From Pseudooctadecabacter jejudonensis (GTDB lineage Bacteria > Pseudomonadota > Alphaproteobacteria > Rhodobacterales > Rhodobacteraceae): a stretch of 64,000 nt of DNA. The notes beneath the pieces are model-generated. The model was not told where the DNA came from and did not search any database. It saw only the letters and a list, made by a program, of their open reading frames with translations. Of the stretch, positions 21,130-44,886 are shown piece after piece. The translations under genes and the position numbers were made by a program. Location of the stretch: contig NZ_FWFT01000002.1 in NCBI RefSeq assembly GCF_900172275.1, forward strand, positions 1 through 64,000, read 5' to 3'. Position 1 is the first letter of the stretch. Every line of letters starts with the position of its first letter.

Positions 21130-21909
21130 TCAAACGGACCGTTCGACCATCATCTTCTTGATGTGGGCGATGGCCGCAGCCGGGTTCAAACCCTTGGGGC
21201 ATGTCTTCGCGCAGTTCATGATCGTGTGGCAACGGTACAGCTTGAACGGATCCTCCAGATCATCCAACCGCTCCCCCGTGGCCTCATCACGACTGTCGAT
21301 GATCCAGCGATACGCATGCAACAACGCCGCTGGCCCCAGATACCGATCACCATTCCACCAATACGACGGGCACGACGTCGAACAGGACGCACACATCACA
21401 CATTCATACAAACCATCCAGCTTCTTGCGGTCCGCAATCGACTGCTTCCACTCCTTCGCGGGACGGTTCGTCTTCGTTTCCAACCACGGCATGATCGACG
21501 CGTGCTGGGCATAAAAATGCGTCAGATCCGGGATCAAATCCTTCACCACCGGCATGTGTGGCAACGGATAGATTTTGATGTCGCCCTTGATCTCGTCCAT
21601 GCCATAGATACAGGCCAGCGTGTTGATCCCGTCGATGTTCATCGCACAAGACCCGCAAATCCCCTCACGGCAAGACCGGCGGAACGTCAGCGTCGGATCG
21701 ATCTCGTTCTTGATCTTGATCAACGCGTCCAGAACCATCGGGCCACAGCTGTCCATGTCGACGAAATAGGTGTCCAGACGCGGGTTCTGTCCGTCGTCAG
21801 GGTTCCAACGGTAAATCTGCACCTTGCGCAGATTGTTTGCCCCTTCAGGACGCGGCCAAGTCTTGCCTGTCGTCATTCGGGAATTCTTGGGCAGGGTCAA
21901 TTGAACCAT
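21130..21909 (-). CDS. sdhB: Succinate dehydrogenase iron-sulfur subunit
   Basis: The electron-transfer subunit of complex II, 259 residues. The N-terminal plant-type ferredoxin domain has [12 protein letters not shown] ([2Fe-2S], with the fourth Cys in GINTLAC). The C-terminal domain has [13 protein letters not shown] ([4Fe-4S]) and [17 protein letters not shown] ([3Fe-4S]). It is the last gene of the sdh unit, ending at the bidirectional terminator. Its start lies 55 bases downstream of an inserted sulfotransferase gene instead of directly after sdhA. Confidence 0.97.
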
Positions 21910-21964
21910 GTTAGCCTCCTTCGAACGATGCGATCACCGCATCTTTTGTTTTCAATTTCACACA

Positions 21965-22759
21965 TCACATCGCCACTTGCAGGGACGGGTCAGGCGTCAA
22001 TTCATTGATCCACGACGCGTCCGCTGCATATCCAAGCGCGACCACATCATCTCCAAACCGATCGACGAACGTCTTCGCCACGCTCGGCGGCAATGTAGAA
22101 CGCCAGTCCTTGCGCGCACCTTTTCGCACATGGCCCTTCAGCGTTTCGTCCTGCTTCAGGTTTCCAAACAGACTATTCCGGCGAAACACCGACCGCGCCA
22201 TATCAAGGTCAAGGCCATCGATACCCCAGTGGTCCATCCCGCGATCAAATTCCGTAAACTGTTTGTCGACCATCAGCTTCTCAAAGTGCCAGCGCACATG
22301 CGCCACGCCAGTGGCAATAAACGCACGGATTTCGCCCATCGTCTTTGCAAAATGATGGTCCATCTCAAACCGCATCTGATCTTCAAACGTCGGCAAAGCC
22401 AACATCTCTTCTTGATAGCTGCGGCCGCCAAAATTCTCACGCGGGATGTGCAACCACCGTTCGGTCTGGTTGCGCAGATGATAATGCGTGCCGGACACCA
22501 ACACCTCCCGCGGGTCGCGGACCATATGAATGAACCGTGCGTCGGGGTGCGCCAACATGCCTTGGTTGAATTCCCCGTGCCAGCTGATCAGGATAGATCG
22601 GTCTTCATCCGGCTCCCACGTTGGATCGTTCAACTTCTCGCCCTTGATCACGTTCCGCGCAATCTTCAGACGTCGAGACAGCCGCCGCGTCACCAAATCC
22701 ATCCAGACGGTGCCGGTCTTGTGATGCGTGCCAAGGCATAGGAAACGAGGGGTGCTCAT
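21965..22759 (-). CDS. Sulfotransferase-domain protein inside the sdh operon
   Basis: 264 residues, start at 22759. The PAPS-binding 5'-phosphosulfate loop is visible as CLGTHHKTGTVWM at residues 8-20, and the 3'-phosphate motif as FIHMVRDPREVLVSGTHYH near residues 77-95. These mark a genuine sulfotransferase fold. The acceptor is unknown; in this group such enzymes may sulfate glycans, lipids or small molecules. It is oriented with sdh genes, between the small lipoproteins and sdhB, so it is likely co-transcribed with complex II although no metabolic link is evident. Confidence 0.83.
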   Translation of the reverse strand: MSTPRFLCLGTHHKTGTVWMDLVTRRLSRRLKIARNVIKGEKLNDPTWEPDEDRSILISWHGEFNQGMLAHPDARFIHMVRDPREVLVSGTHYHLRNQTERWLHIPRENFGGRSYQEEMLALPTFEDQMRFEMDHHFAKTMGEIRAFIATGVAHVRWHFEKLMVDKQFTEFDRGMDHWGIDGLDLDMARSVFRRNSLFGNLKQDETLKGHVRKGARKDWRSTLPPSVAKTFVDRFGDDVVALGYAADASWINELTPDPSLQVAM

Positions 22760-22773
22760 CAATTGATCTTACC

Positions 22774-23076
22774 CTACGTCAGACCTGACGTCGCACAGGT
22801 CACTGTCGCAGGCCGTGCAAGAATGTTGGACACCAGTGTGATGTTGTCGGCGCTGGCCCCTTGTGCGGCCAGCACCAAAAGTTCGTCGCCCGTGGCGTTG
22901 TCGATGATACAGTTCGTCAAAACCTGCCCAGCAGGCCCCGGCACAGTGTCGGCCACAATCGGGGCCACAACGGCGCGGGCCGCGTCACGGCCTGTGTCCA
23001 CGGCTGCGATTTCGACCATATCACAAGCGGACAGGGTCAGGGCAGCAGCGGCGAGGAAGGCGAAGGATTTGGTCAT
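22774..23076 (-). CDS. Small predicted lipoprotein between sdhA and sdhB (second)
   Basis: 100 residues from the ATG at 23076, preceded by GGAG at seven-base spacing. Lipoprotein signal peptide MTKSFAFLAAAALTLSAC, with lipobox L-S-A-C and Cys18 as the predicted lipidated residue. The mature part (AVDTGRDAARAVVAPIVADTVPGPAGQVLTNCIIDNATGDELLVLAA...) contains two further Cys that may form a disulfide. I do not recognise a named family. Localisation to the inner or outer membrane facing the periplasm is inferred. Confidence 0.75.
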   Translation of the reverse strand: MTKSFAFLAAAALTLSACDMVEIAAVDTGRDAARAVVAPIVADTVPGPAGQVLTNCIIDNATGDELLVLAAQGASADNITLVSNILARPATVTCATSGLT

Positions 23077-23094
23077 CTGGGTCTCCAATTCAAG

Positions 23095-23376
23095 TCAGCG
23101 CAGCACGGGTGGGCGAATAGGGTCCGCACCGGTGCGGTCTCGAACGCATTCGGTATAGACCTCAAGCGGGTCACGACCAGCGAGGAAATCGGACGACACC
23201 CCCACTTGAACGCCACCAAAGCCGCCCGTTCTGCTATTGGTGCCCACTGTAACACGGCCCGTCGGACCTTGCGCGGCCCGCGCCCGGTCTTCGCAAATTT
23301 CCGCCGCCCGCACCGGATCAACCGGTTGGGGGGTGCAGGCCGCGAGGACCAGCAGGACAGGGGCTGCGCGCCACAT
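23095..23376 (-). CDS. Small predicted lipoprotein directly after sdhA (first)
   Basis: 93 residues, with start codon overlapping the last base of the sdhA stop codon. Signal peptide and lipobox [14 protein letters not shown] (Cys14). The mature part begins TPQPVDPVRAAEICEDRARAAQGPTGRVTVGTNSRTGGFGGVQVGVSSDFL and ends with ECVRDRTG. The Gly-rich centre with alternating hydrophobics suggests a small beta domain; the paired Cys of EICEDRA and TECVRD may bond. No named family recognised. Tight coupling to sdhA suggests co-translation. Confidence 0.75.
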   Translation of the reverse strand: MWRAAPVLLVLAACTPQPVDPVRAAEICEDRARAAQGPTGRVTVGTNSRTGGFGGVQVGVSSDFLAGRDPLEVYTECVRDRTGADPIRPPVLR

Positions 23377-25181
23377 CAGAATGTGCGCTCTTTCGGGGCG
23401 ATGCGCTTCATCTCAATGCCGCCTTCGGCCTCGGTCGTCAGCGGGTCAGTGACCACAGGACGATAGCTAAGCGTCACATCCGCGCCATCGACGTGGGAAA
23501 TGGTATGCACCCGCCAGGTCTCGTCGTCACGCGTCGTGTAATCCTCATGGGCGTGGGCGCCGCGGCTTTCCTTGCGCGCCTCGGCTCCGGCCACCGTGGC
23601 CAGCGCGTTGGGCAGCAGGTTCGTCAACTCAAGCGTTTCCATAAGGTCGGAATTCCACACAAGGCTGCGGTCGGTGACCTTCAGATCACGTTCCTTGCCC
23701 GCAATGGCGGTCATCTTTTCAACGCCCTCTTTCAGCGTTTTGTCGGTACGGAACACGGCAGCGTCTTCCTGCATCGCCTTTTGCATTTCCAACCGCAGAT
23801 CAGCGGTCGTCACGCCACCATCCGCGTGGCGCAGCCCGTCAAAACGGTCAAACGCCTTATCGACAGAGGCCGCGTTGGTCGACGGAATCGCGGCCCCGCG
23901 GTCCACCACATCGCCCGCGCGGATCGCCGCCGCGCGGCCGAAGACGACAAGGTCGATAAGGCTGTTTGACCCAAGGCGGTTCGCCCCATGCACAGACGCA
24001 CAGCCCGCTTCGCCCACGGCCATCAGGCCGGGCACGATCCGGTTCGGATCGTCTTCGGTCGGGGACAACACTTCGCCGTAGTAGTTCGTCGGAATACCGC
24101 CCATGTTGTAGTGCACCGTCGGCAGCACGGGGATCGGCTCCTTCGTCACATCGACGCCCGCAAAAATCTTGGCGCTTTCCGAGATGCCGGGCAGACGTTC
24201 GGCCAAAGCCTCCGCCGGCAGATGGTTGAGGTTCAGGTGAATGTGATCCCCGTTGGATCCCACACCGCGCCCTTCGCGGATTTCCATGGTCATACAGCGG
24301 GAGACATAGTCGCGCGGCGCCAGATCTTTATAGTTGGGGGCATAACGTTCCATGAAACGCTCCCCTTCGGAGTTGGTCAGATAGCCGCCCTCACCCCGTG
24401 CGCCTTCGGTGATCAGACAGCCCGACCCATAGATGCCCGTCGGGTGGAACTGCACAAATTCCATGTCCTGCAGCGGCAGCCCAGCGCGGGCCACCATACC
24501 GCCACCGTCCCCCGTACAGGTGTGCGCGGACGTCGCGGAGAAATAGGCGCGGCCATAGCCACCTGTAGCTAAAACGACCATCTTGGCGTTGAACACATGC
24601 ATCGTGCCATCGTCCAGCTTCCAGCAGACAACGCCGGTGCAGACCCCATCGTCCGACATGATCAGATCGATCGCGAAATATTCGATGTAGAATTCCGCCT
24701 GCTGTTTCAGGGATTGCCCATACAGCGTGTGCAGAATCGCGTGGCCGGTCCGGTCGGCGGCGGCACAGGTCCGCTGCACGGCGGGGCCTTCGCCAAACTC
24801 GGTCGTGTGGCCACCAAAGGGACGCTGGTAAATCTTGCCTTCTTCAGTGCGCGAAAACGGCACGCCGTAGTGCTCCAATTCATACACTGCCTTGGGGGCC
24901 TCACGGGCGAGGTATTCCATCGCGTCCGTGTCGCCCAGCCAATCCGACCCTTTGACAGTGTCGTACATGTGCCATTGCCAGCTGTCGGGGCCCATGTTGC
25001 CCAGCGACGCGGCAATGCCCCCCTGCGCCGCAACCGTATGCGACCGCGTCGGGAACACCTTGGAAATACAGGCCGTCCGCAGCCCCTGTTCGGCCATGCC
25101 CAAGGTTGCACGCAACCCTGCACCACCTGCACCCACTACCACGACGTCATAATCATGCGTCTCGTATTCGTAAGAAGCCAT
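23376..25181 (-). CDS. sdhA: Succinate dehydrogenase flavoprotein subunit
   Basis: Catalytic subunit of complex II (succinate to fumarate), 601 residues, normal length. FAD-binding motif [21 protein letters not shown] near residue 15, the covalent-FAD His segment [61 protein letters not shown] (active-site region) and the C-terminal HAHEDY (R-G-A-H-A-H-E-D). It follows sdhD by 20 bases. Confidence 0.97.
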
Positions 25182-25201
25182 GTGTCAGATATCCTATCTG
25201 G

Positions 25202-25573
25202 TCAAAGCGCCATGCGGGCCAGTGCGAACAGGCCAACAGCGATCAAAGTATAGGCCAGGGCGTTCAACCCCAGCAGCGTCAGTTTTTCGGCCATCCCGTG
25301 CATGTAATCCTCAACCGCCTCAGCCGCTTCGGCGGTGAAGTGGGAAATCAACACAATCAGTGAGGCCGCCATGATAATAACGGGCAGCGGTTTGCTGAAA
25401 TAGGCCTGAACCTCTTCGAATGTGCCGCCCAGGCCCATGCCAAAGGTGAACACAAACAACGGGATCATCACTTGCAGTGCGATCGAACTGCCAATCATTT
25501 TCCAGAAATGCTTGGTGCCCGATTTCGCAGACCCAAGGCCCTCGGCGCGTTTACGGTCGGTCAAATATGCCAT
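25202..25573 (-). CDS. sdhD: Succinate dehydrogenase membrane anchor subunit
   Basis: A 123-residue protein with three transmembrane helices (about 27-49, 60-80 and 92-120). The opening MAYLTDRKRAEGLGSAKSGTKHFWKMIGSS is typical of alphaproteobacterial SdhD, where it contributes to the quinone site. It lies 15 bases downstream of sdhC and 20 before sdhA, in the order sdhC-sdhD-sdhA. Confidence 0.92.
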   Translation of the reverse strand: MAYLTDRKRAEGLGSAKSGTKHFWKMIGSSIALQVMIPLFVFTFGMGLGGTFEEVQAYFSKPLPVIIMAASLIVLISHFTAEAAEAVEDYMHGMAEKLTLLGLNALAYTLIAVGLFALARMAL

Positions 25574-25587
25574 TGTCCACCCCCCCC

Positions 25588-25971
25588 TTACAGTACGATG
25601 ACGACAAACGCCGTCAGCAGGAATGAAATCAGGACCATCGCCTTGGCAAACAACTCGGACTTATCCACGTCCAGCATATAGCCGAAATCCCAGATCACGT
25701 GCCGGAGGCGCCCAAACATGTGGTAGAACAAGGCCCATGTCGCCAGCGCCATGATCAGGTCGCCAAACCAGCTGCGCAACAGCCCGTCGATAAAGCCAAA
25801 GGCGCTTTCGGACGTCGCCGCAGCAATCAGCCACCACACCACCAAAATCGACCCCAGCAAAAGTCCGATCCCCGTGATGCGCACAAAAATCGACGACATC
25901 GACGTCCACTGCGGGCGGTAGATCATCAAATGCGGAGACAGGGGGCGGTTGCCCCGATTCACGTCGGCCAT
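25588..25971 (-). CDS. sdhC: Succinate dehydrogenase cytochrome b556 subunit
   Basis: 127 residues from the ATG at 25971 (MADVNRGNRPLSPHLMIYRPQWTSMSSI), the universal SdhC opening; a longer frame to 26013 is not needed. Three transmembrane helices follow. The heme-ligand His segment is LFYHMFGRLRHVIWDFG near residue 85. It is the first gene of the sdh unit, and two TGTGATCACA-type operator sites lie 140-170 bases upstream. Confidence 0.94.
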   Translation of the reverse strand: MADVNRGNRPLSPHLMIYRPQWTSMSSIFVRITGIGLLLGSILVVWWLIAAATSESAFGFIDGLLRSWFGDLIMALATWALFYHMFGRLRHVIWDFGYMLDVDKSELFAKAMVLISFLLTAFVVIVL

Positions 25972-26110: not shown

Positions 26111-26141
26111 TGTGATCACACATTGAAACGGCGTGATCACA
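26111..26141. promoter_or_regulatory. Paired TGTGATCACA-type operators upstream of sdhC
   Basis: Site A is TGTGATCACA at 26111-26120 and site B is CGTGATCACA at 26132-26141. Their centres are exactly 21 bases apart, two DNA turns, placing both on one face. Identical spacing is seen upstream of sucC. The region (25972-26162) holds no gene, and the gene upstream is co-oriented, so the sites can only serve sdhC. The GTnnnnAC core suits a GntR/FCD-type regulator. Confidence 0.7.
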
Positions 26142-32538: not shown

Positions 32539-32579
32539 ACATTTGTGATCACACAATTTTCAAGTGTGATCACAAATGT
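32539..32579. promoter_or_regulatory. 41-base inverted repeat with paired TGTGATCACA operators upstream of sucC
   Basis: A perfect 16-base inverted repeat (32539-32554 and 32564-32579) around a nine-base spacer. Each arm contains TGTGATCACA: site C at 32544-32553 and site D at 32565-32574, centres 21 bases apart. It lies about 96 bases upstream of the sucC start. The same two-site spacing occurs at sdhC. Besides this and the preceding terminator, the 312-base gap 32363-32674 contains no gene. Confidence 0.8.
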
Positions 32580-32674: not shown

Positions 32675-33868
32675 ATGAACATCCACGAATATCAGGCCAA
32701 AGCCCTGCTCGCGCAATTCGGCGCCCCCGTCAGCGACGGCCGCGCCGTGCTGAAGGCCGAGGACGCGAAAACCGCTGCAGGTGAACTTGATGGCCCCCTT
32801 TGGGTGGTCAAGGCCCAGATCCACGCAGGCGGTCGCGGCAAAGGCAAATTCAAAGAGGCCGACGCGGGCGACGCAGGCGGCGTGCGCCTGACCAAATCGG
32901 TGGAAGAGGCCGCAGAAGAGGCCAAAAAGATGCTGGGCCGCACCCTTGTGACCCACCAGACCGGTCCGGCGGGCAAGCAAGTCAACCGCATCTACATCGA
33001 AGACGGTTCCGGCATTGAAACGGAAATGTATCTGGCCCTGCTGGTGGACCGCGCCACATCGCGCATCGGTTTTGTCTGCTCCACCGAAGGCGGCATGGAC
33101 ATCGAAGAAGTGGCTGAGGCCACCCCCGAAAAGATCCTGAACTTCACCGTTGATCCCGCCACGGGATACCAGCCCTACCATGGCCGCCGCGTGGCTTTTG
33201 CCCTCGGACTTGAAGGCCAGCAGGTCAAGCAATGCGTCAAACTGATGGGCCAGCTTTACAAAGCGTTCACCGAAAAAGACATGGAAATGCTTGAGATCAA
33301 CCCCCTGATCGTGACCGACAAGGGCGATCTGAAAGTACTCGATGCCAAGGTCGCCTTTGACGGCAACGCCGTCTACCGCCACACAGATATCGCCGCCCTG
33401 CGCGATGAAACGGAAGAGGATCCAAAGGAACTCGCCGCCTCCAAATACGACCTGAACTATATCGCACTCGACGGCGAAATCGGCTGCATGGTCAACGGTG
33501 CGGGCCTTGCCATGGCGACGATGGACATCATCAAGCTGTATGGCGCGGAACCTGCAAACTTCCTCGACGTGGGTGGCGGCGCCACCAAGGAAAAGGTCAC
33601 CGAGGCGTTCAAGATCATCACGTCCGATCCCAACGTCAAAGGCATTCTGGTCAACATCTTCGGCGGCATCATGCGCTGTGACGTCATCGCCGAAGGCGTG
33701 GTCGCGGCCGTGAAAGAGGTCGGCCTGCAGGTCCCCCTCGTCGTGCGCCTTGAGGGCACGAACGTGGAAGCCGGCAAAGACATCATCAACAACTCCGACG
33801 TTGATGTGATCGCCGCCGACGACCTCAAGGACGGCGCGCAGAAGATCGTGAAGGCGGTCAAAGGGTGA
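32675..33868 (+). CDS. sucC: Succinyl-CoA synthetase (ADP-forming) beta subunit
   Basis: 397 residues from ATG 32675, the standard SucC length, with opening [23 protein letters not shown]-grasp domain segments: [20 protein letters not shown] and the metal-binding [29 protein letters not shown]. The C-terminal CoA-ligase domain carries [11 protein letters not shown] and [15 protein letters not shown]. It is the first gene of sucC-sucD-(sulfotransferase-like)-sucA-sucB and is preceded by a paired operator site. Confidence 0.97.
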
Positions 33869-33921
33869 TTGTCGGTTCGGCGCAGCCGATGAGGCATCCA
33901 GCGGATGCCTCAAGACAATCA
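33866..33921. repeat. Three-way palindromic element between sucC and sucD
   Basis: An outer stem TGATTGTC (33866-33873) / GACAATCA (33914-33921) encloses two hairpins: TCGGC-GCA-GCCGA (33877-33889) and GAGGCATCC-AGC-GGATGCCTC (33891-33911). In RNA this gives a three-way junction; in DNA a cruciform. The outer stem starts inside the sucC stop codon. It looks like a REP/mosaic intergenic element, but only this copy is seen in the window. Confidence 0.6.
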
Positions 33922-33990
33922 CGGGCGGAGCCCCGGGGTCAGAAATTTCGCGAAGGTAAAGCCTCGCACCACAGTTAAGGAGCCACCATC

Positions 33991-34875
33991 ATGGCCATTC
34001 TCGTAAACGAAAACACTCGCGTCATCTGTCAGGGCCTCACCGGCTCGCAGGGGACATTCCACTCCGAACAGGCCATCGCCTACGGCACCAAGATGGTCGG
34101 CGGCGTGACACCGGGCAAAGGTGGGCAGACCCATCTGGACCTGCCGATCTTCAACTCCGTGCATGAGGCCAAGCACGTGACCGAGGCCAACGCCTCCGTC
34201 ATCTACGTGCCGCCCCCCTTCGCCGCGGATTCCATCCTTGAGGCGATTGATGCCGAGATGGAGCTGATCATCTGCATCACCGAAGGCATTCCGGTGCTCG
34301 ACATGATGCGCGTCAAACGCGCGCTTGAAAACTCCGCCTCTCGTCTGATCGGGCCGAACTGCCCCGGCGTGATCACACCGGATGCGTGCAAAATCGGCAT
34401 CATGCCCGGCCACATCCACAAACGTGGGTCCGTGGGCGTCGTGTCCCGCTCCGGTACGTTGACCTATGAGGCGGTGAAACAGACGTCTGACAGCGGTCTG
34501 GGCCAGTCCACCGCCGTGGGCATCGGTGGCGACCCGATCAAGGGCACCGAACACATCGACGTGCTGGACATGTTCCTGGATGACGACGAAACCCAATCGA
34601 TCATCATGATCGGTGAAATCGGCGGCTCCGCCGAGGAAGAGGCCGCCGAATTCCTGACCGAGCAAAAGAAGAAAGGTCGTTGGAAACCAACCGCCGGTTT
34701 CATCGCTGGCCGCACCGCCCCTCCCGGACGTCGCATGGGCCACGCCGGTGCTATCGTGGCAGGCGGCAAGGGCGACGCGGAATCCAAGATCGAAGCGATG
34801 AAATCCGCTGGCATCGTGGTGGCCGACAGCCCCGCGACACTGGGCGAGGCCGTGCTTGAGGCGATCGGCAAGTGA
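33991..34875 (+). CDS. sucD: Succinyl-CoA synthetase alpha subunit
   Basis: 294 residues. Start preceded by AAGGAGCC at good spacing. N-terminal CoA-binding Rossmann domain ([27 protein letters not shown]...GGVTPGKGG), then [33 protein letters not shown], and the phosphohistidine segment [21 protein letters not shown] near residue 246. Normal length. The gene after it is a sulfotransferase-like gene instead of sucA. Confidence 0.97.
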
Positions 34876-34927
34876 TGTCTTTTGGGGCAGACGAGCGCAT
34901 GGGCGCACAGCCAGCGAGGGCCATCTG

Positions 34928-35647
34928 ATGGTTCTCGTGTCGCACGCCCACGCCTTCGTCTACCTCAAGACGTTCAAAACGGCCGGCACCTCCGCCGAAA
35001 TGGCGCTGGAGCCGCTTTGCGCGCCCGCAGGCCATGTGCCTCAACACGCCTGCCCCGCCCAGATCAGCGATGTGGGCATCATCGGCGCACGCATGAAACC
35101 GGCCTCCACCGACACCACCGGCTGGTGGGGCCACCTGTCCGCCGCTGCCACGCGCGCCAAATTGGGCGACGCCCTATGGGCCGCTTATGACCGCATCGCG
35201 GTGCTGCGCAATCCTTTCGACAAAGCCGTGTCGTGGTTTTATTGGTCGCGCCGCAAGGACGACACCGAGGGCCGCACCATGATCGACGCCTTCCGCGCCT
35301 TCATCGCGGCCCAAACACAGGCTGGGTTTTTTGGATCCCCTCGTGATTTCGACCTGCACAGCACCCATATCAATGGCACGAACATCATCACCGGTTGGTT
35401 CCGGATGGAAACCCTGCGCCAAGATCTTGATCTCTTCGCCCGCGATAGGGGCATCGCCCCTGCGACCCTTGCGCTGGCCGCCACCAAACGCGGCCGCAGG
35501 TCGTCCGACACCCTGCCTGTCGCCGCCTATTACGACACAAAAACCGCCGATATCATCCGCCGCCATTACGCTTGGATGTTCGACATCGGCGGCTACTCAC
35601 TTTACCCGCAAGACGCCCAGCGCGCCAGCCGAGAGGTTCTTACATGA
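34928..35647 (+). CDS. Sulfotransferase-like protein between sucD and sucA
   Basis: 239 residues from ATG 34928, preceded by GAGGG. An N-terminal PAPS-loop-like segment YLKTFKTAGTSAEMALE (residues 12-28) and a 3'-phosphate-like motif RIAVLRNPFDKAVSWFYW (about 90-107) fit the sulfotransferase_2/heparan-sulfotransferase-like group. Its last four bases (ATGA) overlap the sucA start, so it is translationally coupled to sucA. The acceptor is unknown. It is distinct in sequence from the sulfotransferase in the sdh operon. Confidence 0.76.
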   Translation: MVLVSHAHAFVYLKTFKTAGTSAEMALEPLCAPAGHVPQHACPAQISDVGIIGARMKPASTDTTGWWGHLSAAATRAKLGDALWAAYDRIAVLRNPFDKAVSWFYWSRRKDDTEGRTMIDAFRAFIAAQTQAGFFGSPRDFDLHSTHINGTNIITGWFRMETLRQDLDLFARDRGIAPATLALAATKRGRRSSDTLPVAAYYDTKTADIIRRHYAWMFDIGGYSLYPQDAQRASREVLT

Positions 35648-38601
35648 CCGACCAATCCAACAACGACGTCTTCCATGCCTCCTCCTTCATGCAGGGGCAC
35701 AATGCGGAATATATCGAACAGCTGTATGCCCGCTACGCCGACAACCCCGGCGCTGTGGACGAACAATGGCAAGCGTTCTTCCGGTCGTTGGGCGATGCGC
35801 CGAGCGATGCCAAGGCGGAGGCCGCGGGCCCCTCTTGGGCCCGCACCGATTGGCCCCCGCAGCCCAATGACGATCTGACGGCCGCCCTCGACGGCCAATG
35901 GGCGGCTGAACCCGAGGCCGCTGGCAAGAAGATCAAGGAAAAGGCCGCCGAAAAAGGCGTCGAGATTTCCGAAGAACAGGTGCGGGCCGCGGTCCTCGAC
36001 AGCATCCGCGCGCTGATGATCATCCGCGCCTACCGCATCCGCGGCCATCTGGTGGCTGACCTTGACCCGCTGGGCATGCGCGACCAGACCCCGCACCCCG
36101 AACTCGATCCCGCTTCTTACGGCTTCACCGCCGCCGACATGGACCGTCCGATTTTTATCGACAACGTCCTTGGTCTGGAAATGGCGACGATGAACGACAT
36201 TCTCGCCATCGTGAAACGCACCTATTGCGGCACCTTCGCGCTTCAATACATGCACATTTCCAACCCGGAAGAGGCCGCATGGCTCAAGGAACGGATTGAG
36301 GGCGCGCACAAGGAAATCAGCTTCACCAAGGAAGGCCGCAAGGCCATCCTGAATTCCCTTGTCCAAGGTGAGGGTTTTGAAAAATTCCTGCACGTCAAAT
36401 ACATGGGCACCAAACGGTTCGGCCTTGATGGGGGTGAGGCGCTGATCCCCGCCATGGAACAGATCATCAAACGGGGCGGGCAGTTGGGCCTGCAGGACAT
36501 CGTGATCGGCATGCCCCACCGCGGCCGCCTCTCTGTCCTCGCCAACGTGATGCAGAAACCCTACAAGGCGATCTTCAACGAATTTCAGGGCGGCAGCTTC
36601 AAACCCGAAGACGTCGACGGCTCCGGCGATGTGAAATACCACCTCGGCGCCTCGTCTGACCGTGAATTTGACGGCAACAATGTCCACCTGTCGCTGACAG
36701 CCAACCCGTCTCACCTTGAGGCCGTGAACCCCGTCGTTCTGGGCAAAGTCCGCGCCAAACAAGACCAAATCAATGACGAAGACCGCACAAAGGTCATGGG
36801 CATCCTGCTCCATGGTGACGCGGCCTTTGCAGGTCAGGGCGTCGTCGCCGAAGGGTTCGGCCTGTCGGGCCTCAAGGGGCACAAGACCGGCGGCACCATG
36901 CACATCGTGGTCAACAACCAGATCGGCTTTACCACCGCGCCGCATTTCTCGCGCTCCAGCCCCTACCCCACGGACATCGCCCTGATGGTCGAGGCCCCGA
37001 TCTTCCACGTGAACGGCGACGACCCCGAGGCCGTGGTCCACGCCGCCCGCGTGGCCACCGAATTCCGCCAGAAGTTCCACAAAGACGTGGTTCTGGACAT
37101 CATTTGCTACCGTCGGTTCGGCCACAACGAAGGCGACGAGCCGATGTTCACCAATCCGGTGATGTACAAAAAGATCAAAAAACAAAAGACCACGCTGACG
37201 CTTTACACCGAACGTCTGGTGCGTGACGGGCTGATCCCCGAAGGCGAAATCGAAGACATGAAGGCCGCCTTCCAGGCCCACCTGAATGAAGAATTTGAGG
37301 CCGGCAAGGATTACAAACCCAACAAGGCCGACTGGCTGGATGGGAAATGGTCCCACCTCGATAAGCGCGAAAAAAACAAATACCAGCGCGGCAAGACCGG
37401 CATTGAAAAAGAAACCTTCGACGAGGTCGGCAAAGCCCTGACCACAGTGCCCGACGGCTATCCTCTCCACAAAACAGTGGGCCGGATCCTTGAGGCCAAG
37501 AAAAAGATGTTTGAAACTGGGACGGGCTTTGATTGGGCCACCGGTGAGGCCTTGGCCTTCGGCTCGCTGCTGACCGAAGGCTACCCCGTGCGTCTGTCCG
37601 GTCAGGACTCCACCCGCGGCACATTCTCCCAACGGCACTCCGGCATCGTCAACCAAGAGGACGAGACCCGCTACTACCCCCTCAACAACATCCGCGACGG
37701 CCAATCCCGGTATGAGGTCATCGACTCCATGCTGTCGGAATACGCGGTGCTGGGCTTTGAATACGGCTACTCGCTGGCCGAACCCAATGCGCTGACCCTG
37801 TGGGAAGCGCAATTCGGTGACTTCGCCAACGGCGCGCAAATCATGTTCGACCAGTTCATCAGCTCAGGCGAAAGCAAATGGCTGCGGATGTCCGGCCTCG
37901 TCTGCCTTCTGCCCCACGGCTACGAAGGCCAAGGCCCCGAACACTCCAGCGCACGTCTGGAACGGTTCCTGACCATGTGCGGCGGCGACAACTGGATCGT
38001 GGCCAACTGCACCACGCCCGCCAACTACTTCCACATTCTGCGCCGCCAGCTGCACCGCAGCTACCGCAAACCGCTCATCATGATGACGCCAAAATCCCTG
38101 CTGCGCCACAAGATGGCCGTCAGCAAGGCGGAAGAATTCCAAACCGGATCGTCCTTCCACCGCGTCCTGTGGGATGACGCGCAATACGGCAATTCCGACA
38201 CCAAACTGGTGGCCGACGACAAGATCAAACGCGTCGTCATGTGTTCCGGTAAGGTCTACTACGACCTTCTCGAAGAACGTGACGCGCGCGGCATCGACGA
38301 TGTCTATCTCATGCGGTTTGAACAGTTCTACCCCTTCCCCGCCCAATCGGCGGTCAAGGAATTGGAACGTTTCCCACAGGCCGAAATGGTCTGGTGCCAG
38401 GAAGAACCCAAAAACCAGGGCGCATGGTCGTTCATCGAACCGAACATCGAATGGGTCCTGACCCGCATCGGCGCAAAACACACCCGCCCCTCCTACGCCG
38501 GACGCGCGGCCGCAGCCTCCCCTGCGACCGGCCTCGCCTCCCAGCACAAAGCACAGCAAGACGCGCTCGTGAATGACGCGCTTACCATCGAAGGAAACTA
38601 A
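35644..38601 (+). CDS. sucA: 2-oxoglutarate dehydrogenase E1 component
   Basis: 985 residues, thiamine diphosphate-dependent decarboxylase. Opening MTDQSNNDVFHASSFMQGHNAEYIEQLYARYADNPGAVDEQWQ is the E2-binding N-terminal motif. Active-site segments: IGMPHRGRLSVLANV, SADNPSHLEAVNPVV-like ANPSHLEAVNPVVLGKVRA, and the ThDP motif GDAAFAGQGVVAEGFGLSGLKGHKTGGTMHIVVNNQIGFTT. The C-terminal transketolase-like part has SGQDSTRGTFSQRHS and LLPHGYEGQGPEHSSARLERFL. Length matches other OGDH E1s. Confidence 0.97.
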   Translation: MTDQSNNDVFHASSFMQGHNAEYIEQLYARYADNPGAVDEQWQAFFRSLGDAPSDAKAEAAGPSWARTDWPPQPNDDLTAALDGQWAAEPEAAGKKIKEKAAEKGVEISEEQVRAAVLDSIRALMIIRAYRIRGHLVADLDPLGMRDQTPHPELDPASYGFTAADMDRPIFIDNVLGLEMATMNDILAIVKRTYCGTFALQYMHISNPEEAAWLKERIEGAHKEISFTKEGRKAILNSLVQGEGFEKFLHVKYMGTKRFGLDGGEALIPAMEQIIKRGGQLGLQDIVIGMPHRGRLSVLANVMQKPYKAIFNEFQGGSFKPEDVDGSGDVKYHLGASSDREFDGNNVHLSLTANPSHLEAVNPVVLGKVRAKQDQINDEDRTKVMGILLHGDAAFAGQGVVAEGFGLSGLKGHKTGGTMHIVVNNQIGFTTAPHFSRSSPYPTDIALMVEAPIFHVNGDDPEAVVHAARVATEFRQKFHKDVVLDIICYRRFGHNEGDEPMFTNPVMYKKIKKQKTTLTLYTERLVRDGLIPEGEIEDMKAAFQAHLNEEFEAGKDYKPNKADWLDGKWSHLDKREKNKYQRGKTGIEKETFDEVGKALTTVPDGYPLHKTVGRILEAKKKMFETGTGFDWATGEALAFGSLLTEGYPVRLSGQDSTRGTFSQRHSGIVNQEDETRYYPLNNIRDGQSRYEVIDSMLSEYAVLGFEYGYSLAEPNALTLWEAQFGDFANGAQIMFDQFISSGESKWLRMSGLVCLLPHGYEGQGPEHSSARLERFLTMCGGDNWIVANCTTPANYFHILRRQLHRSYRKPLIMMTPKSLLRHKMAVSKAEEFQTGSSFHRVLWDDAQYGNSDTKLVADDKIKRVVMCSGKVYYDLLEERDARGIDDVYLMRFEQFYPFPAQSAVKELERFPQAEMVWCQEEPKNQGAWSFIEPNIEWVLTRIGAKHTRPSYAGRAAAASPATGLASQHKAQQDALVNDALTIEGN

Positions 38602-38604
38602 GCC

Positions 38605-40113
<1,509 letters not shown>

Positions 40114-41109: not shown

Positions 41110-42498
41110 ATGGCCAACTACGACGTCATCATCATCGGATCCGGCCCCGGCGGCTATGTCAGCGCCATCCGCTGTGCGCAGCTGGGCCTGAAAACCGCCT
41201 GCGTGGAAGGCCGCGAAACGCTGGGCGGCACCTGCCTGAACGTGGGCTGTATTCCGTCCAAAGCCTTGCTGCATGCCTCCCATATGTTGCATGAGGCCGA
41301 ACACAATTTTGCCGCCATGGGCCTCAAGGGCAAATCGCCATCGGTCGATTGGAAACAGATGTTGTCCTACAAAAACGACACCATCGGCGCCAACACCAGC
41401 GGCATCGAATTTCTCTTTAAAAAGAACAAGGTAGACTGGCTCAAAGGTTGGGGCTCGATCCCTGAGGCGGGCAAAGTGAAGGTCGGTGATGAGGTCCATG
41501 AGGCCAAGAACATCATCATCGCCACAGGCTCCGACGTGGCCACCCTGCCGGGCGTTGAGATTGACGAGAAAACCGTCGTCTCCTCCACGGGTGCGCTGGA
41601 ACTTTCCAAGATCCCCAACAAGATGGTCGTGATCGGTGCGGGCGTCATCGGGCTGGAACTGGGGTCTGTCTACAAACGTCTTGGGGCTGAGGTCACGGTG
41701 ATCGAATACCTTGACGTCATCACCCCCGGCATGGACGCCGAGGTGCAGCGCACTTTCCAAAAGCTTTTGAAAAAACAAGGGCTTGAATTCATCATGGGGG
41801 CTGCTGTTCAGGGAGTTGAGGCCAAGAACAACAAGGCGACCGTCACCTACAAACTACGCAAAGACGACAGTGAGGCGACGCTTGACGCCGATGTTGTCCT
41901 CGTCGCGACGGGCCGCAAACCCTACACCGATGGCCTTGGTCTGGCGGACCTTGGCGTTGAGATGTCGGGGCGGGGCCAGATCAAAACGGACGGTCATTAC
42001 AAAACCTCCGTCGAGGGCATCTACGCCATCGGCGATTGCATCGACGGGCCGATGTTGGCGCACAAGGCTGAGGACGAGGGCATGGCCTGCGCCGAAGGCC
42101 TCGCCGGTCAGAAACCGCATGTTAACTATGATGTGATACCAGGGGTCATCTATACCCACCCTGAGGTCGCGAATGTCGGCAAAACCGAAGAACAGCTGAA
42201 AGAAGACGGGCGCGACTACAAAGTTGGCAAGTTTTCCTTCATGGGCAATGGCCGCGCCAAGGCCAACTTTGCCGCAGATGGTTTTGTGAAAATCCTTGCG
42301 GACAAGGCGACTGATCGAATTTTGGGCGCGCATATCGTGGGGCCCATGGCGGGCGATCTGATCCACGAGATTTGCGTGGCCATGGAATTCGGCGCCGCTG
42401 CCGAAGACCTCGCGCGTACGTGCCACGCACACCCGACATATTCTGAGGCCGTGCGTGAGGCGGCCTTGGCCTGCGGAGATGGCCCAATTCACTCATAA
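41110..42498 (+). CDS. lpd: Dihydrolipoyl dehydrogenase (E3)
   Basis: 462 residues. FAD motif [20 protein letters not shown], redox-active disulfide [13 protein letters not shown] (CLNVGC), NAD motif [20 protein letters not shown] and the C-terminal active-site base [15 protein letters not shown]. It serves the 2-oxoglutarate dehydrogenase complex encoded just upstream, and possibly other 2-oxoacid complexes. Normal length. It ends near a hairpin with a T-rich tail. Confidence 0.97.
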
Positions 42499-42666: not shown

Positions 42667-43518
42667 ATGAGTATGCGCCGTTTGTTTCTTTCATTTTCCT
42701 CCGCCCTTGCCATGGGTGTCACGCTGTTTGCAGCAACGCCAGCACAGGCCACCGTGGGTCAATATGGCACCGACTTGCGGTTCGTCACGCACACGACAAT
42801 CCCCAGCCCTGGCGGGGGTGAGGCAATCGCCCTGTGTCATTTGGTGGATTACATGCATGTCCTGTTCATCCCCGTCTACACCACCGTCGAAGGCTACGCC
42901 CTCGCGACCGGCGACTGCACCGCGGAGACCTATCGCGACTTGAGCACTGAGAACCTGATGGACCTAAAGGCCGCAGGATTCGTGCCGCAGAACGTCCCAG
43001 ACACACCGCACACCGGATGGGCTGATCTGGCTTGGGGTCACGCCTGGTTGATCATTGGCGCAATCGGGCTTCTGTACCGTGGCCTCACTTTGCTGCCCAT
43101 GGGCCGCCGCAAACGGCGCGCCGCAGCGCCGGACACCCTTGCGATCCATTCGCTTGTCGCCATGTCGCAGGTGGCCGTGGCCGATGGCACAATTGATGAT
43201 CGAGAAATCAGGCAGATTTCCACCATCCTGACCCGTCTGACAGGACAGGGGTATTCAATGGAACGGGTGGCGGAGCTTCTGCAACGCCTGAAGCCCACGC
43301 CTTCCGATCTGGCGCAAGTCGGCGCTGATTTGACGTCCAATGACCGCCAAATCGTGCTGGAGGCCGCGCTGAACATTGCCGTGGCAGATGGCGAAATTCA
43401 CCCCAGCGAATATGCTGTCGTGTCTGATCTGGCGCAGCGGATGAAGATTGGGGCGGATCAGTTCCGCGCCGCACTGCACCGGATATCAGCCCACATGAGC
43501 ATGGGTCAGGCCGCCTAG
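42667..43518 (+). CDS. Membrane-anchored TerB-like domain protein
   Basis: 283 residues. Signal peptide (MRRLFLSFSSALAMGVTLFAATPAQA), a periplasmic N-terminal domain with GGGEAIALCHLVDYMHVLFIPVYTTVEGYAL, a transmembrane helix (about 121-140: WGHAWLIIGAIGLLYRGLTL), and a cytosolic C-terminal TerB-like helical domain (about 155-280) with the paired acidic motifs AVADGTIDDREI and AVADGEIHPSEY. TerB-type domains bind metal via the acidic clusters. Convergent with the GntR gene, sharing four bases. Function unknown. Confidence 0.7.
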   Translation: MSMRRLFLSFSSALAMGVTLFAATPAQATVGQYGTDLRFVTHTTIPSPGGGEAIALCHLVDYMHVLFIPVYTTVEGYALATGDCTAETYRDLSTENLMDLKAAGFVPQNVPDTPHTGWADLAWGHAWLIIGAIGLLYRGLTLLPMGRRKRRAAAPDTLAIHSLVAMSQVAVADGTIDDREIRQISTILTRLTGQGYSMERVAELLQRLKPTPSDLAQVGADLTSNDRQIVLEAALNIAVADGEIHPSEYAVVSDLAQRMKIGADQFRAALHRISAHMSMGQAA

Positions 43519-44165
43519 ACCTTCAGCATCCGAAGGCCTTGCGTGGCGTCCGACCGCACGGCGAGCTTCAGGCTCGCCTCATCTCCGGCCTTCAGGGCGG
43601 CAAGGATCAGTTTGTGGTTGCGCGGCGTTTCCGTGCGGCGCAAGCGACCATAAAGCTTTGACATGGTCGGCCCAAGCTGCAGCCAAATCGTTTCCGCCAT
43701 GGCCAGCATCGCAGGGGCCTGCGCCCGCAGATAAAGGGTGCGGTGAAATTCAAGGTTCAGCCGGATGTATCCCGGCGCATCTTGGCGGGCGATGACCGGC
43801 GCGATGCGGTTGTTGATTTCCTCCAACCGGTCAATCAGCGCCAGATGGGCGCGGGGCAAGGCGCGGGCGGCGAGTTCCGGTTCCAGCAAGGCCCGCAGGG
43901 TGGCCAGCTCCTCGATCCGTTCGTTCGACAGCTCAGGCGTTGAGACACGGCCGGACGAGGACAGGAACAACGCGCCTTCGGCCACCAAGCGCCGCGCCGC
44001 CTCTCGTGCGGGGGTCATGGACACGCCAAATTCCGCGCCAATGCCGCGCAACGTCAAAGCCTGGCCGGGGTGGATTTCGCCATGCATGATCCGCAGCCGC
44101 AAGGCACGGTACACGCGGTCATGGGCGGCGCCTGTTGGCTCTGTCGCTTTGGATTGGATCAACAT
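43515..44165 (-). CDS. GntR/FCD-family transcriptional regulator (candidate TCA-cycle regulator)
   Basis: 216 residues: N-terminal winged helix (about 15-75, HDRVYRALRLRIMHGEIHPGQALTLRGIGAEFGVSMTPAREAARRLVAEGAL) and an FCD effector domain (about 85-210). Of the usual D-x3-H...H...H metal ligands, N-x3-H (NLEFH) and the middle His (RNHKLI) are visible; the last appears replaced (RSDATQG), so metal binding is uncertain. A TGTGATCACA palindrome at 44174-44183 ends nine bases upstream of the start, the same motif as at sdhC and sucC. Autoregulation and control of sdh/suc are inferred. Effector unknown, possibly a TCA acid. Confidence 0.9.
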   Translation of the reverse strand: MLIQSKATEPTGAAHDRVYRALRLRIMHGEIHPGQALTLRGIGAEFGVSMTPAREAARRLVAEGALFLSSSGRVSTPELSNERIEELATLRALLEPELAARALPRAHLALIDRLEEINNRIAPVIARQDAPGYIRLNLEFHRTLYLRAQAPAMLAMAETIWLQLGPTMSKLYGRLRRTETPRNHKLILAALKAGDEASLKLAVRSDATQGLRMLKV

Positions 44166-44173
44166 GGGGTGAG

Positions 44174-44183
44174 TGTGATCACA
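44174..44183. promoter_or_regulatory. TGTGATCACA operator before the GntR gene
   Basis: A single perfect copy of the palindrome found as pairs upstream of sdhC and sucC. It lies in the 31-base gap between the YgjP-like gene and gntR, nine bases from the gntR start codon. No second site is present at 21 bases on either side. Confidence 0.65.
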
Positions 44184-44196
44184 TCACGGGCGGGGG

Positions 44197-44886
44197 TCAA
44201 TCGAAACGGACACGGTGCAGCGCGCTGCCATGATTTTTTAACCAGACGCGGCAGGCTTTGTGATCTGGAAACAAGTCTTCGACGACGCCCCAAAACCGGG
44301 ACGAATGGTCCATGTGCTGCAGGTGGGCAACCTCATGCGCGGCGACGTATTCCAGCACCGCGGGCGGGGCCATAATCAGCCGCCATGAATACATCAGATC
44401 GCCTGCGCTGGAACACGACCCCCACCGGGACCGCGTGTCGCGCAGGGTGATGCGTCCATAAGGGCGGCCCAAGGCCGCCGCATATTTTTCAGACGCGGCG
44501 ACCAATCCGTCCCGCGCCTGAAGTTTCAAAAATGCCTTCACGCGCGCCGCGACCTTCGCAGGCTCATCGGGCACGATCAGGCCCTCTGGGCCCACCCGCG
44601 CCCGCCGCACGTCACCCGCCATGACCCGCAGTTCTTGCCCGCGAAAGGGCACGGTGCCACCAATCTGCACCGCGACCTCGGGCGCGACCTCGGCAAGGTG
44701 TTTGCGCAGCCAGGCCTCACGGTCTTTGAGGAACGCCATCCCCTCACGTTCAGGCACCCGTGTGGGCAATGTCAGCGTTGCACGCCCATCGAGGCGTGAC
44801 ACGCGCAACGACAGCCGCCGCGCCCGCGAGGACCGCCGCAACAACACTTCTACTGGGGGGTTGCCATCAAGGATCAAACAGCCCAT
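44197..44886 (-). CDS. YgjP/SprT-like metallopeptidase (DUF45)
   Basis: 229 residues. Zinc-metalloprotease motif HEVAHLQHMDHSSRFW (H-E-x-x-H with a third His) at about residues 186-201, preceded by DTRSRWGSCSSAGDLMYSWRLIMAPPAVLEYVAAHE, the DUF45/YgjP signature. Likely cytosolic. Substrates unknown. It is directly upstream of the GntR gene on the same strand, 31 bases apart. Confidence 0.88.
   Translation of the reverse strand: MGCLILDGNPPVEVLLRRSSRARRLSLRVSRLDGRATLTLPTRVPEREGMAFLKDREAWLRKHLAEVAPEVAVQIGGTVPFRGQELRVMAGDVRRARVGPEGLIVPDEPAKVAARVKAFLKLQARDGLVAASEKYAAALGRPYGRITLRDTRSRWGSCSSAGDLMYSWRLIMAPPAVLEYVAAHEVAHLQHMDHSSRFWGVVEDLFPDHKACRVWLKNHGSALHRVRFD

What the first reader, a model, noticed from the sequence alone, without database searches (positions are those of the whole stretch)
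43515..44183. Candidate TCA-cycle regulon run by a locally encoded GntR/FCD regulator
Seen: TGTGATCACA occurs once next to the gntR start (44174-44183) and as same-spaced pairs upstream of sdhC and sucC. Known: GntR/FCD regulators bind palindromes with a GTnnnnAC core and are often autoregulated. Inference: this regulator, encoded beside lpd, senses a TCA-linked metabolite and co-regulates sdh, suc and itself. mdh and lpd lack the site. I know of no described system of this kind in this lineage, though I cannot search.
Basis: partly seen in the sequence, partly recalled or inferred. Interest (0 to 1): 0.78.

Follow-up and report, generated by a model that had tools for sequence, protein, structure and literature searches.

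The report
Known TCA-cycle regulator AkgR
The DNA sites and the regulator gene are real and belong together, but this is the AkgR switch for energy-metabolism genes already described in a related photosynthetic bacterium, so it is mostly ordinary.

Summary
GTGATCAC palindromes stand as doublets 21 bp apart before sdhC and sucC, and once directly before a GntR/FCD gene. Linking this regulator to these sites is also well supported. But it is not new. The gene is the ortholog of what is almost certainly RSP_0981, AkgR of Rhodobacter (Cereibacter) sphaeroides: 73% identity, reciprocal best hit, same neighbours. PMC4344238 predicts that RSP_0981 regulates succinyl-CoA synthetase, succinate dehydrogenase and 2-oxoglutarate dehydrogenase genes. 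PMC6365646 calls AkgR a transcriptional activator with GTGATCAC among its sites. R. sphaeroides has the same two doublets at nearly the same distances. The exact doublet occurs in 338 of 394 family genomes from 393 genera. Doublets of any spacing occur in 351 of 356 genomes with a strong ortholog and 10 of 38 without. A possible new detail is a single operator across the -10 region of a probably leaderless gntR promoter, suggesting autorepression. It is in 16 of 17 loci of the genus, but not in R. sphaeroides and in only 16 of 80 named loci nearest to it. The effector stays unknown.

The parts
43515..44165 (-). gntR/FCD regulator gene, ortholog of AkgR (RSP_0981), 216 aa
   Evidence: Pfam GntR and FCD domains; 73% identical to the only close homolog in R. 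sphaeroides G085; reciprocal best hit and supported clade
44174..44183 (.). single operator TGTGATCACA, 9-18 nt before the gntR start codon
   Evidence: GTGATCAC at the same place in 16 of 17 loci of the genus
44195..44200 (-). probable -35 element TTGACC of gntR, ending 29 nt before the ATG; the operator core begins 12 nt after it
   Evidence: sequence; TTGAC hexamer ending 28-30 nt before the start in 37 of 37 operator-bearing loci scored
26111..26141 (.). operator doublet (GTGATCAC-N13-GTGATCAC), 140 bp before sdhC
32544..32574 (.). operator doublet (GTGATCAC-N13-GTGATCAC), 101 bp before sucC
25588..25971 (-). sdhC, first gene of target operon sdhCDAB
   Evidence: NCBIfam TIGR02970 over cut-off; aligns to R. 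sphaeroides
21130..25573 (-). sdhD (by position; no NCBIfam match at 1e-20), sdhA and sdhB, with two ORFs of unknown function between sdhA and sdhB
   Evidence: ORFs; sdhA and sdhB named; order matched
32675..40113 (+). sucC, sucD, an unverified 263-aa ORF (34856-35647), sucA, sucB: second target operon
   Evidence: ORFs; the four suc genes named, same order in R. sphaeroides; the 263-aa ORF has no Pfam match
41110..42498 (+). lpd, downstream in the same direction; no site of its own
   Evidence: TIGR01350 over cut-off; the predicted R. sphaeroides regulon includes RSP_0965-62

Best explanation
The gene at 43515-44165 encodes the AkgR ortholog of this Rhodobacteraceae bacterium. Dimers bind GTGATCAC. 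Two dimers on one face of the helix (21 bp, two turns) about 100-140 bp before the start codons of sucC and sdhC activate the suc(-lpd) and sdh operons. One dimer on a single operator over the -10 region of its own leaderless promoter represses gntR. Shown here: the sites, their conservation, orthology to the R. sphaeroides protein, and co-occurrence of regulator and doublets. Taken from the literature: activator role and binding motif, in R. sphaeroides. Inferred: binding in this organism, the dimer geometry, autorepression, and control by a TCA-linked metabolite.
For: Reciprocal best hit at 73% identity, next best 32% and 29%; in a tree of 42 selected FCD proteins a clade of 18 with support 1.0 holds the window and R. 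sphaeroides proteins. Neighbours ygjP and FYDLN_acid gene are shared, and R. sphaeroides has doublets 106 bp before sucC and 142 bp before sdhC against 101 and 140 here. Of 34 doublet loci examined, 18 lie before sucC, 15 before sdhC, 1 before neither. Exact doublet in 338 of 394 family genomes. Doublet of any spacing (gap 3-32) in 351 of 356 genomes with a strong ortholog and 10 of 38 without, Fisher p about 2e-29, not corrected for phylogeny. Predicted RSP_0981 regulon and AkgR motif match.
Against: No binding was tested here. Ten genomes have doublets without a strong ortholog; their completeness is 70-100% and one of them is 100%, so some may use another protein. Five genomes have a strong ortholog but no doublet. 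A second regulator clade 35-40% identical exists in several family members and could share the sites there, though not in the window's genome, where the next FCD protein is 28% identical. R. sphaeroides lacks the gntR operator, so autoregulation is not expected there.
Confidence: 0.93

Rival explanations
1. The doublets are bound by a different factor, for example another FCD/GntR paralog or a global regulator such as CceR, and the gntR gene only sits nearby.
For: The same palindrome is proposed as the site of another GntR-like regulator, PS417_07240 of Pseudomonas simiae. 10 of 38 genomes without a strong ortholog keep doublets.
Against: Doublets go with this regulator in 351 of 356 genomes, also in genomes where the gene is far from the TCA genes (G198, G233). 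The palindrome stands before this gene in 16 of 17 genus members. AkgR sites include this motif.
Confidence: 0.05
2. The palindromes are chance or a general feature (for example a methylation target or nucleoid signal), not operators.
For: GTGATCAC is frequent in the genome (150 copies), and only two exact doublets exist.
Against: About 0.007 exact doublets expected against 2 found, both before TCA operons (my arithmetic); 338 of 394 family genomes have them, at a narrow distance from the same two genes in 33 of 34 loci examined.
Confidence: 0.01
3. At its own gene the protein is an activator rather than a repressor.
For: AkgR is described as an activator.
Against: The operator core starts 12 nt after a conserved TTGAC hexamer in 33 of 37 operator-bearing loci and 14 nt after it in 4, that is, across the spacer and -10 region, where repression is expected (general knowledge).
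Confidence: 0.1

Closest known systems
AkgR (RSP_0981) regulon of Rhodobacter/Cereibacter sphaeroides (Imam et al. 2015, mBio, not held; predicted in PMC4344238)
   Same: Orthologous regulator, same neighbours ygjP and FYDLN_acid gene, same target operons suc(-lpd) and sdh, same GTGATCAC doublets at nearly the same distances.
   Different: Gene lies beside lpd here and beside sdhB there; a single operator before gntR here, none there.
PS417_07240 of Pseudomonas simiae (PMC6365646)
   Same: GntR-like regulator with the same GTGATCAC palindrome, 32% identical to AkgR per that paper.
   Different: Proposed to control a deoxyribonate oxidation cluster, not the TCA cycle.
McbR (YncC) of E. coli, PDB 4p9f
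   Same: Closest solved structure by sequence.
   Different: Different targets (recalled); weak similarity, E about 1e-19.
PdhR regulon expanded to TCA genes in Shewanellaceae (PMC5343134)
   Same: A GntR-family protein controlling sdhCDAB and other TCA genes (passages).
   Different: Pyruvate-responsive PdhR, a different regulator in a different lineage.

Membership tests
AkgR ortholog group | GntR winged-helix plus FCD domain | tested here: met
   Pfam PF00392 51.1 bits and PF07729 74.7 bits, both over cut-off
AkgR ortholog group | Orthology to the R. sphaeroides protein | tested here: met
   Reciprocal best hit, 73%; clade support 1.0. The G085 = R. sphaeroides identification rests on a 100% match to PDB 4l9y, whose organism is given in PMC3832036. 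That the G085 gene is RSP_0981 is inferred from its place just past sdhB and from being the only close homolog; no locus tag was seen
AkgR regulon | GTGATCAC sites before sdh and suc operons | tested here: met
AkgR regulon | Direct binding and activation of TCA genes | not testable with these tools
   Needs gel shift or ChIP and a deletion strain; for R. sphaeroides known to me from PMC6365646 and from memory of the mBio 2015 abstract (paper not held)
AkgR regulon | Effector that modulates activity | not testable with these tools
   No ligand data; the name suggests 2-oxoglutarate (recalled, from no call)

The most novel reading that the evidence does not exclude
The same AkgR protein acts in two geometries: as an activator from 21-bp-spaced doublets far upstream of sdhC and sucC, and as an autorepressor from one operator across the -10 region of a leaderless gntR promoter. 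This feedback loop is present in the window's genus and in many other family members (among named ones Ruegeria, Phaeobacter, Roseobacter MED193) but missing in R. sphaeroides and most of its near relatives, the clade where AkgR was described.
Probability: 0.6. Interest if true: 0.35.

Novelty: already known. Interest (0 to 1): 0.2.

Why it matters
It extends a regulon studied in one model species to most of a large bacterial family: the doublet is in 338 of 394 genomes sampled, nearly all from different genera. It also gives a clear spacing rule. The autoregulatory operator, missing in the model species, points to lineage differences in how TCA-cycle expression is kept steady. That is useful for annotation and modelling but not a new kind of system.

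Tried and rejected
Rejected: chance, and a new TCA regulon without precedent. Considered whether the doublet regulon is larger: with up to 3 mismatches the pair pattern gives 56 hits per strand in the window's genome and 43 in R. sphaeroides. The list is sorted by mismatches and capped; in the window's genome it shows no further hit with 0 or 1 mismatch, and R. sphaeroides has one further hit with 1 mismatch (C4:318302), not followed up. Singles and other spacings were not pursued as targets. The tool's reversed-pattern control was ignored because the reversed word contains CTAG, which is rare in many bacteria (recalled). The E <= 1e-70 cut for a strong ortholog was chosen; at the cut E <= 1e-30 the table is 355 of 367 against 6 of 27, so the conclusion does not depend on it. 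Seven genomes without a match were not listed; I inferred them by comparing its list with that. Of 131 gntR loci, 57 were dropped before the promoter count (56 without a clear aligned start or enough upstream sequence, 1 duplicate). The 80 named loci were chosen by likeness to the R. sphaeroides protein, so the share with an operator is not a family estimate. The doublet loci cover 30 of the 338 genomes, one doublet each; 1 of the 30 (L101) had no TCA gene beside it. The tree used 42 hand-picked loci. Promoter elements of sdhC and sucC were looked at but are not clear enough to call. Structure prediction was not run, as sequence settled the identity.

Full report
Observation. TGTGATCACA occurs four times in the window, at 26111, 32544, 32565 and 44174, against 0.06 expected in shuffles. 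The fifth copy, 26132-26141, has one mismatch outside the 8-bp core. The core GTGATCAC forms two doublets, 26112/26133 and 32545/32566, each 21 bp start to start. They lie 140 bp before sdhC and 101 bp before sucC. The core occurs 150 times in the 3.41-Mb genome; by my arithmetic about 0.007 exact doublets of this spacing are expected, and exactly these two exist. The list, sorted by mismatches and capped, shows no doublet with one mismatch in this genome. Of the 11 TGTGATCACA copies outside the window, 9 lie inside an ORF of at least 250 aa. The target genes were named with NCBIfam models over their cut-offs: sdhC, sdhA, sdhB, sucC, sucD, sucA, sucB, lpd and mdh; sdhD had no match at 1e-20 and is named by position.

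The regulator. The ORF at 43515-44165 carries GntR and FCD domains. The genome has 11 FCD proteins. G085 has one close homolog at 73% identity, the next at 32%. Searched back against the window genome's FCD proteins, it finds the window gene first at 73% and the next at 29%. In a tree of 42 selected proteins both fall in a clade of 18 with support 1.0. In G085 the gene order is lpd-sucB-sucA-sucD-sucC-mdh, then mcl2, mch, sdhC-D-A-B, gntR, ygjP, FYDLN_acid gene (mcl2 and mch are recalled names). The window has the same genes, with gntR-ygjP-FYDLN_acid (Pfam names) beside lpd instead of sdhB; a TerB-domain ORF (42667-43518) lies between lpd and gntR.

What is known. [quoted passage not shown] sphaeroides. 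The primary paper, Imam et al. 2015 in mBio, is not held; its title was seen in reference lists. From memory, its abstract equates AkgR with RSP_0981, reports direct activation of several TCA-cycle genes, and predicts conserved orthologs in other alphaproteobacteria. No locus tag was seen for the G085 gene; its place just past sdhB fits RSP_0981. The finding is therefore a known system met in another genus.

Conservation. In 394 genomes of the family, from 393 genera, the exact N13 doublet occurs in 338, and a doublet with a gap of 3-32 in 361. The regulator is found at E <= 1e-30 in 367, of which 356 have E <= 1e-70. Of these 356, 351 have a doublet; of the other 38, 10 do (Fisher p about 2e-29; related genomes are not independent). 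For the exact N13 doublet the figures are 328 of 356 against 10 of 38, and with the looser protein cut the any-spacing table is 355 of 367 against 6 of 27. Of 34 doublet loci examined (30, two of R. sphaeroides, two of the window), 18 precede sucC, 17 of them by 101-112 bp and one by 177, and 15 precede sdhC by 107-191 bp; one has neither gene. The gene need not be near its targets: in G233 it lies about 117 kb from the nearer doublet, in G198 about 58 kb, and in G126 on another contig.

Autoregulation. A GTGATCAC starts 16-17 nt before the gntR start in 16 of 17 loci of the window's genus. It occurs within 150 nt upstream in 21 of 33 other family loci, in 16 of 80 named loci nearest to the R. 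sphaeroides protein (79 with full upstream sequence), and not in R. sphaeroides. In 74 distinct loci with a clear start, 37 carry the operator. All 37 have TTGAC with its hexamer ending 28-30 nt before the start codon, and none has AGGA, GGAG or GAGG in the Shine-Dalgarno region; in mononucleotide shuffles TTGAC falls in the searched 20-40 nt range in 1.6%. The operator core starts 12 nt after that element in 33 of 37 and 14 nt in 4. A gap of 29 nt is what a leaderless transcript would show (17-nt spacer, -10 hexamer, 6 nt; general knowledge). I infer that the operator covers the -10 region and represses gntR. Of the 37 loci without operator, 31 keep the TTGAC and 1 has a Shine-Dalgarno-like word. 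These loci are related and not independent.

Limits. Binding, activation and effector were not tested here. The four-ligand metal site typical of FCD domains (recalled) looks incomplete in the alignments; I did not test this further. Other literature searches were seen as listings, with passages of some hits opened; in what I saw there was no other report on this protein. Subscription papers are mostly not in the library.

Noticed in passing
L041, position 1501 (own genome C13:189450): A single TGTGATCACA lies between clpP (Pfam CLP_protease) and clpX (Pfam ClpX zinc finger) ORFs, about 110 bp before the probable clpX start; conservation not checked.
   Followed up: partly
G023:C3:32190, G020:C5:28969, G021:C1:2917512, G004:C31:6581, G008:C3:50226, G002:C30:4348: A second group of homologs, 35-40% identical to the window protein, occurs in several family members; in G021 it lies about 25 kb from the AkgR ortholog. 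Targets unknown.
   Followed up: no
L101 (G076:C16:228293) and genomes G298, G296, G169: Extra doublets beyond two per genome: L101 has none of the searched TCA-region genes within its 3 kb, and G298 has 11 pairs with gaps of 3-32. Possible regulon growth or repeats.
   Followed up: partly
28 of 394 family genomes, for example G022, G048, G117, G200: Both a strong ortholog and any doublet are missing, which suggests loss of the whole regulon in some lineages (some of these assemblies are incomplete).
   Followed up: partly
G319:C7:69515, G397:C12:171250, G351:C35:117190, G168:C9:429968: Some genomes carry a doublet with a 12-nt gap instead of 13.
   Followed up: no
window 22774-23088 and 34856-35647: ORFs without a Pfam match sit inside the sdh and suc operons: a small lipoprotein-like one between sdhA and sdhB, and a 263-aa one between sucD and sucA.
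   Followed up: partly
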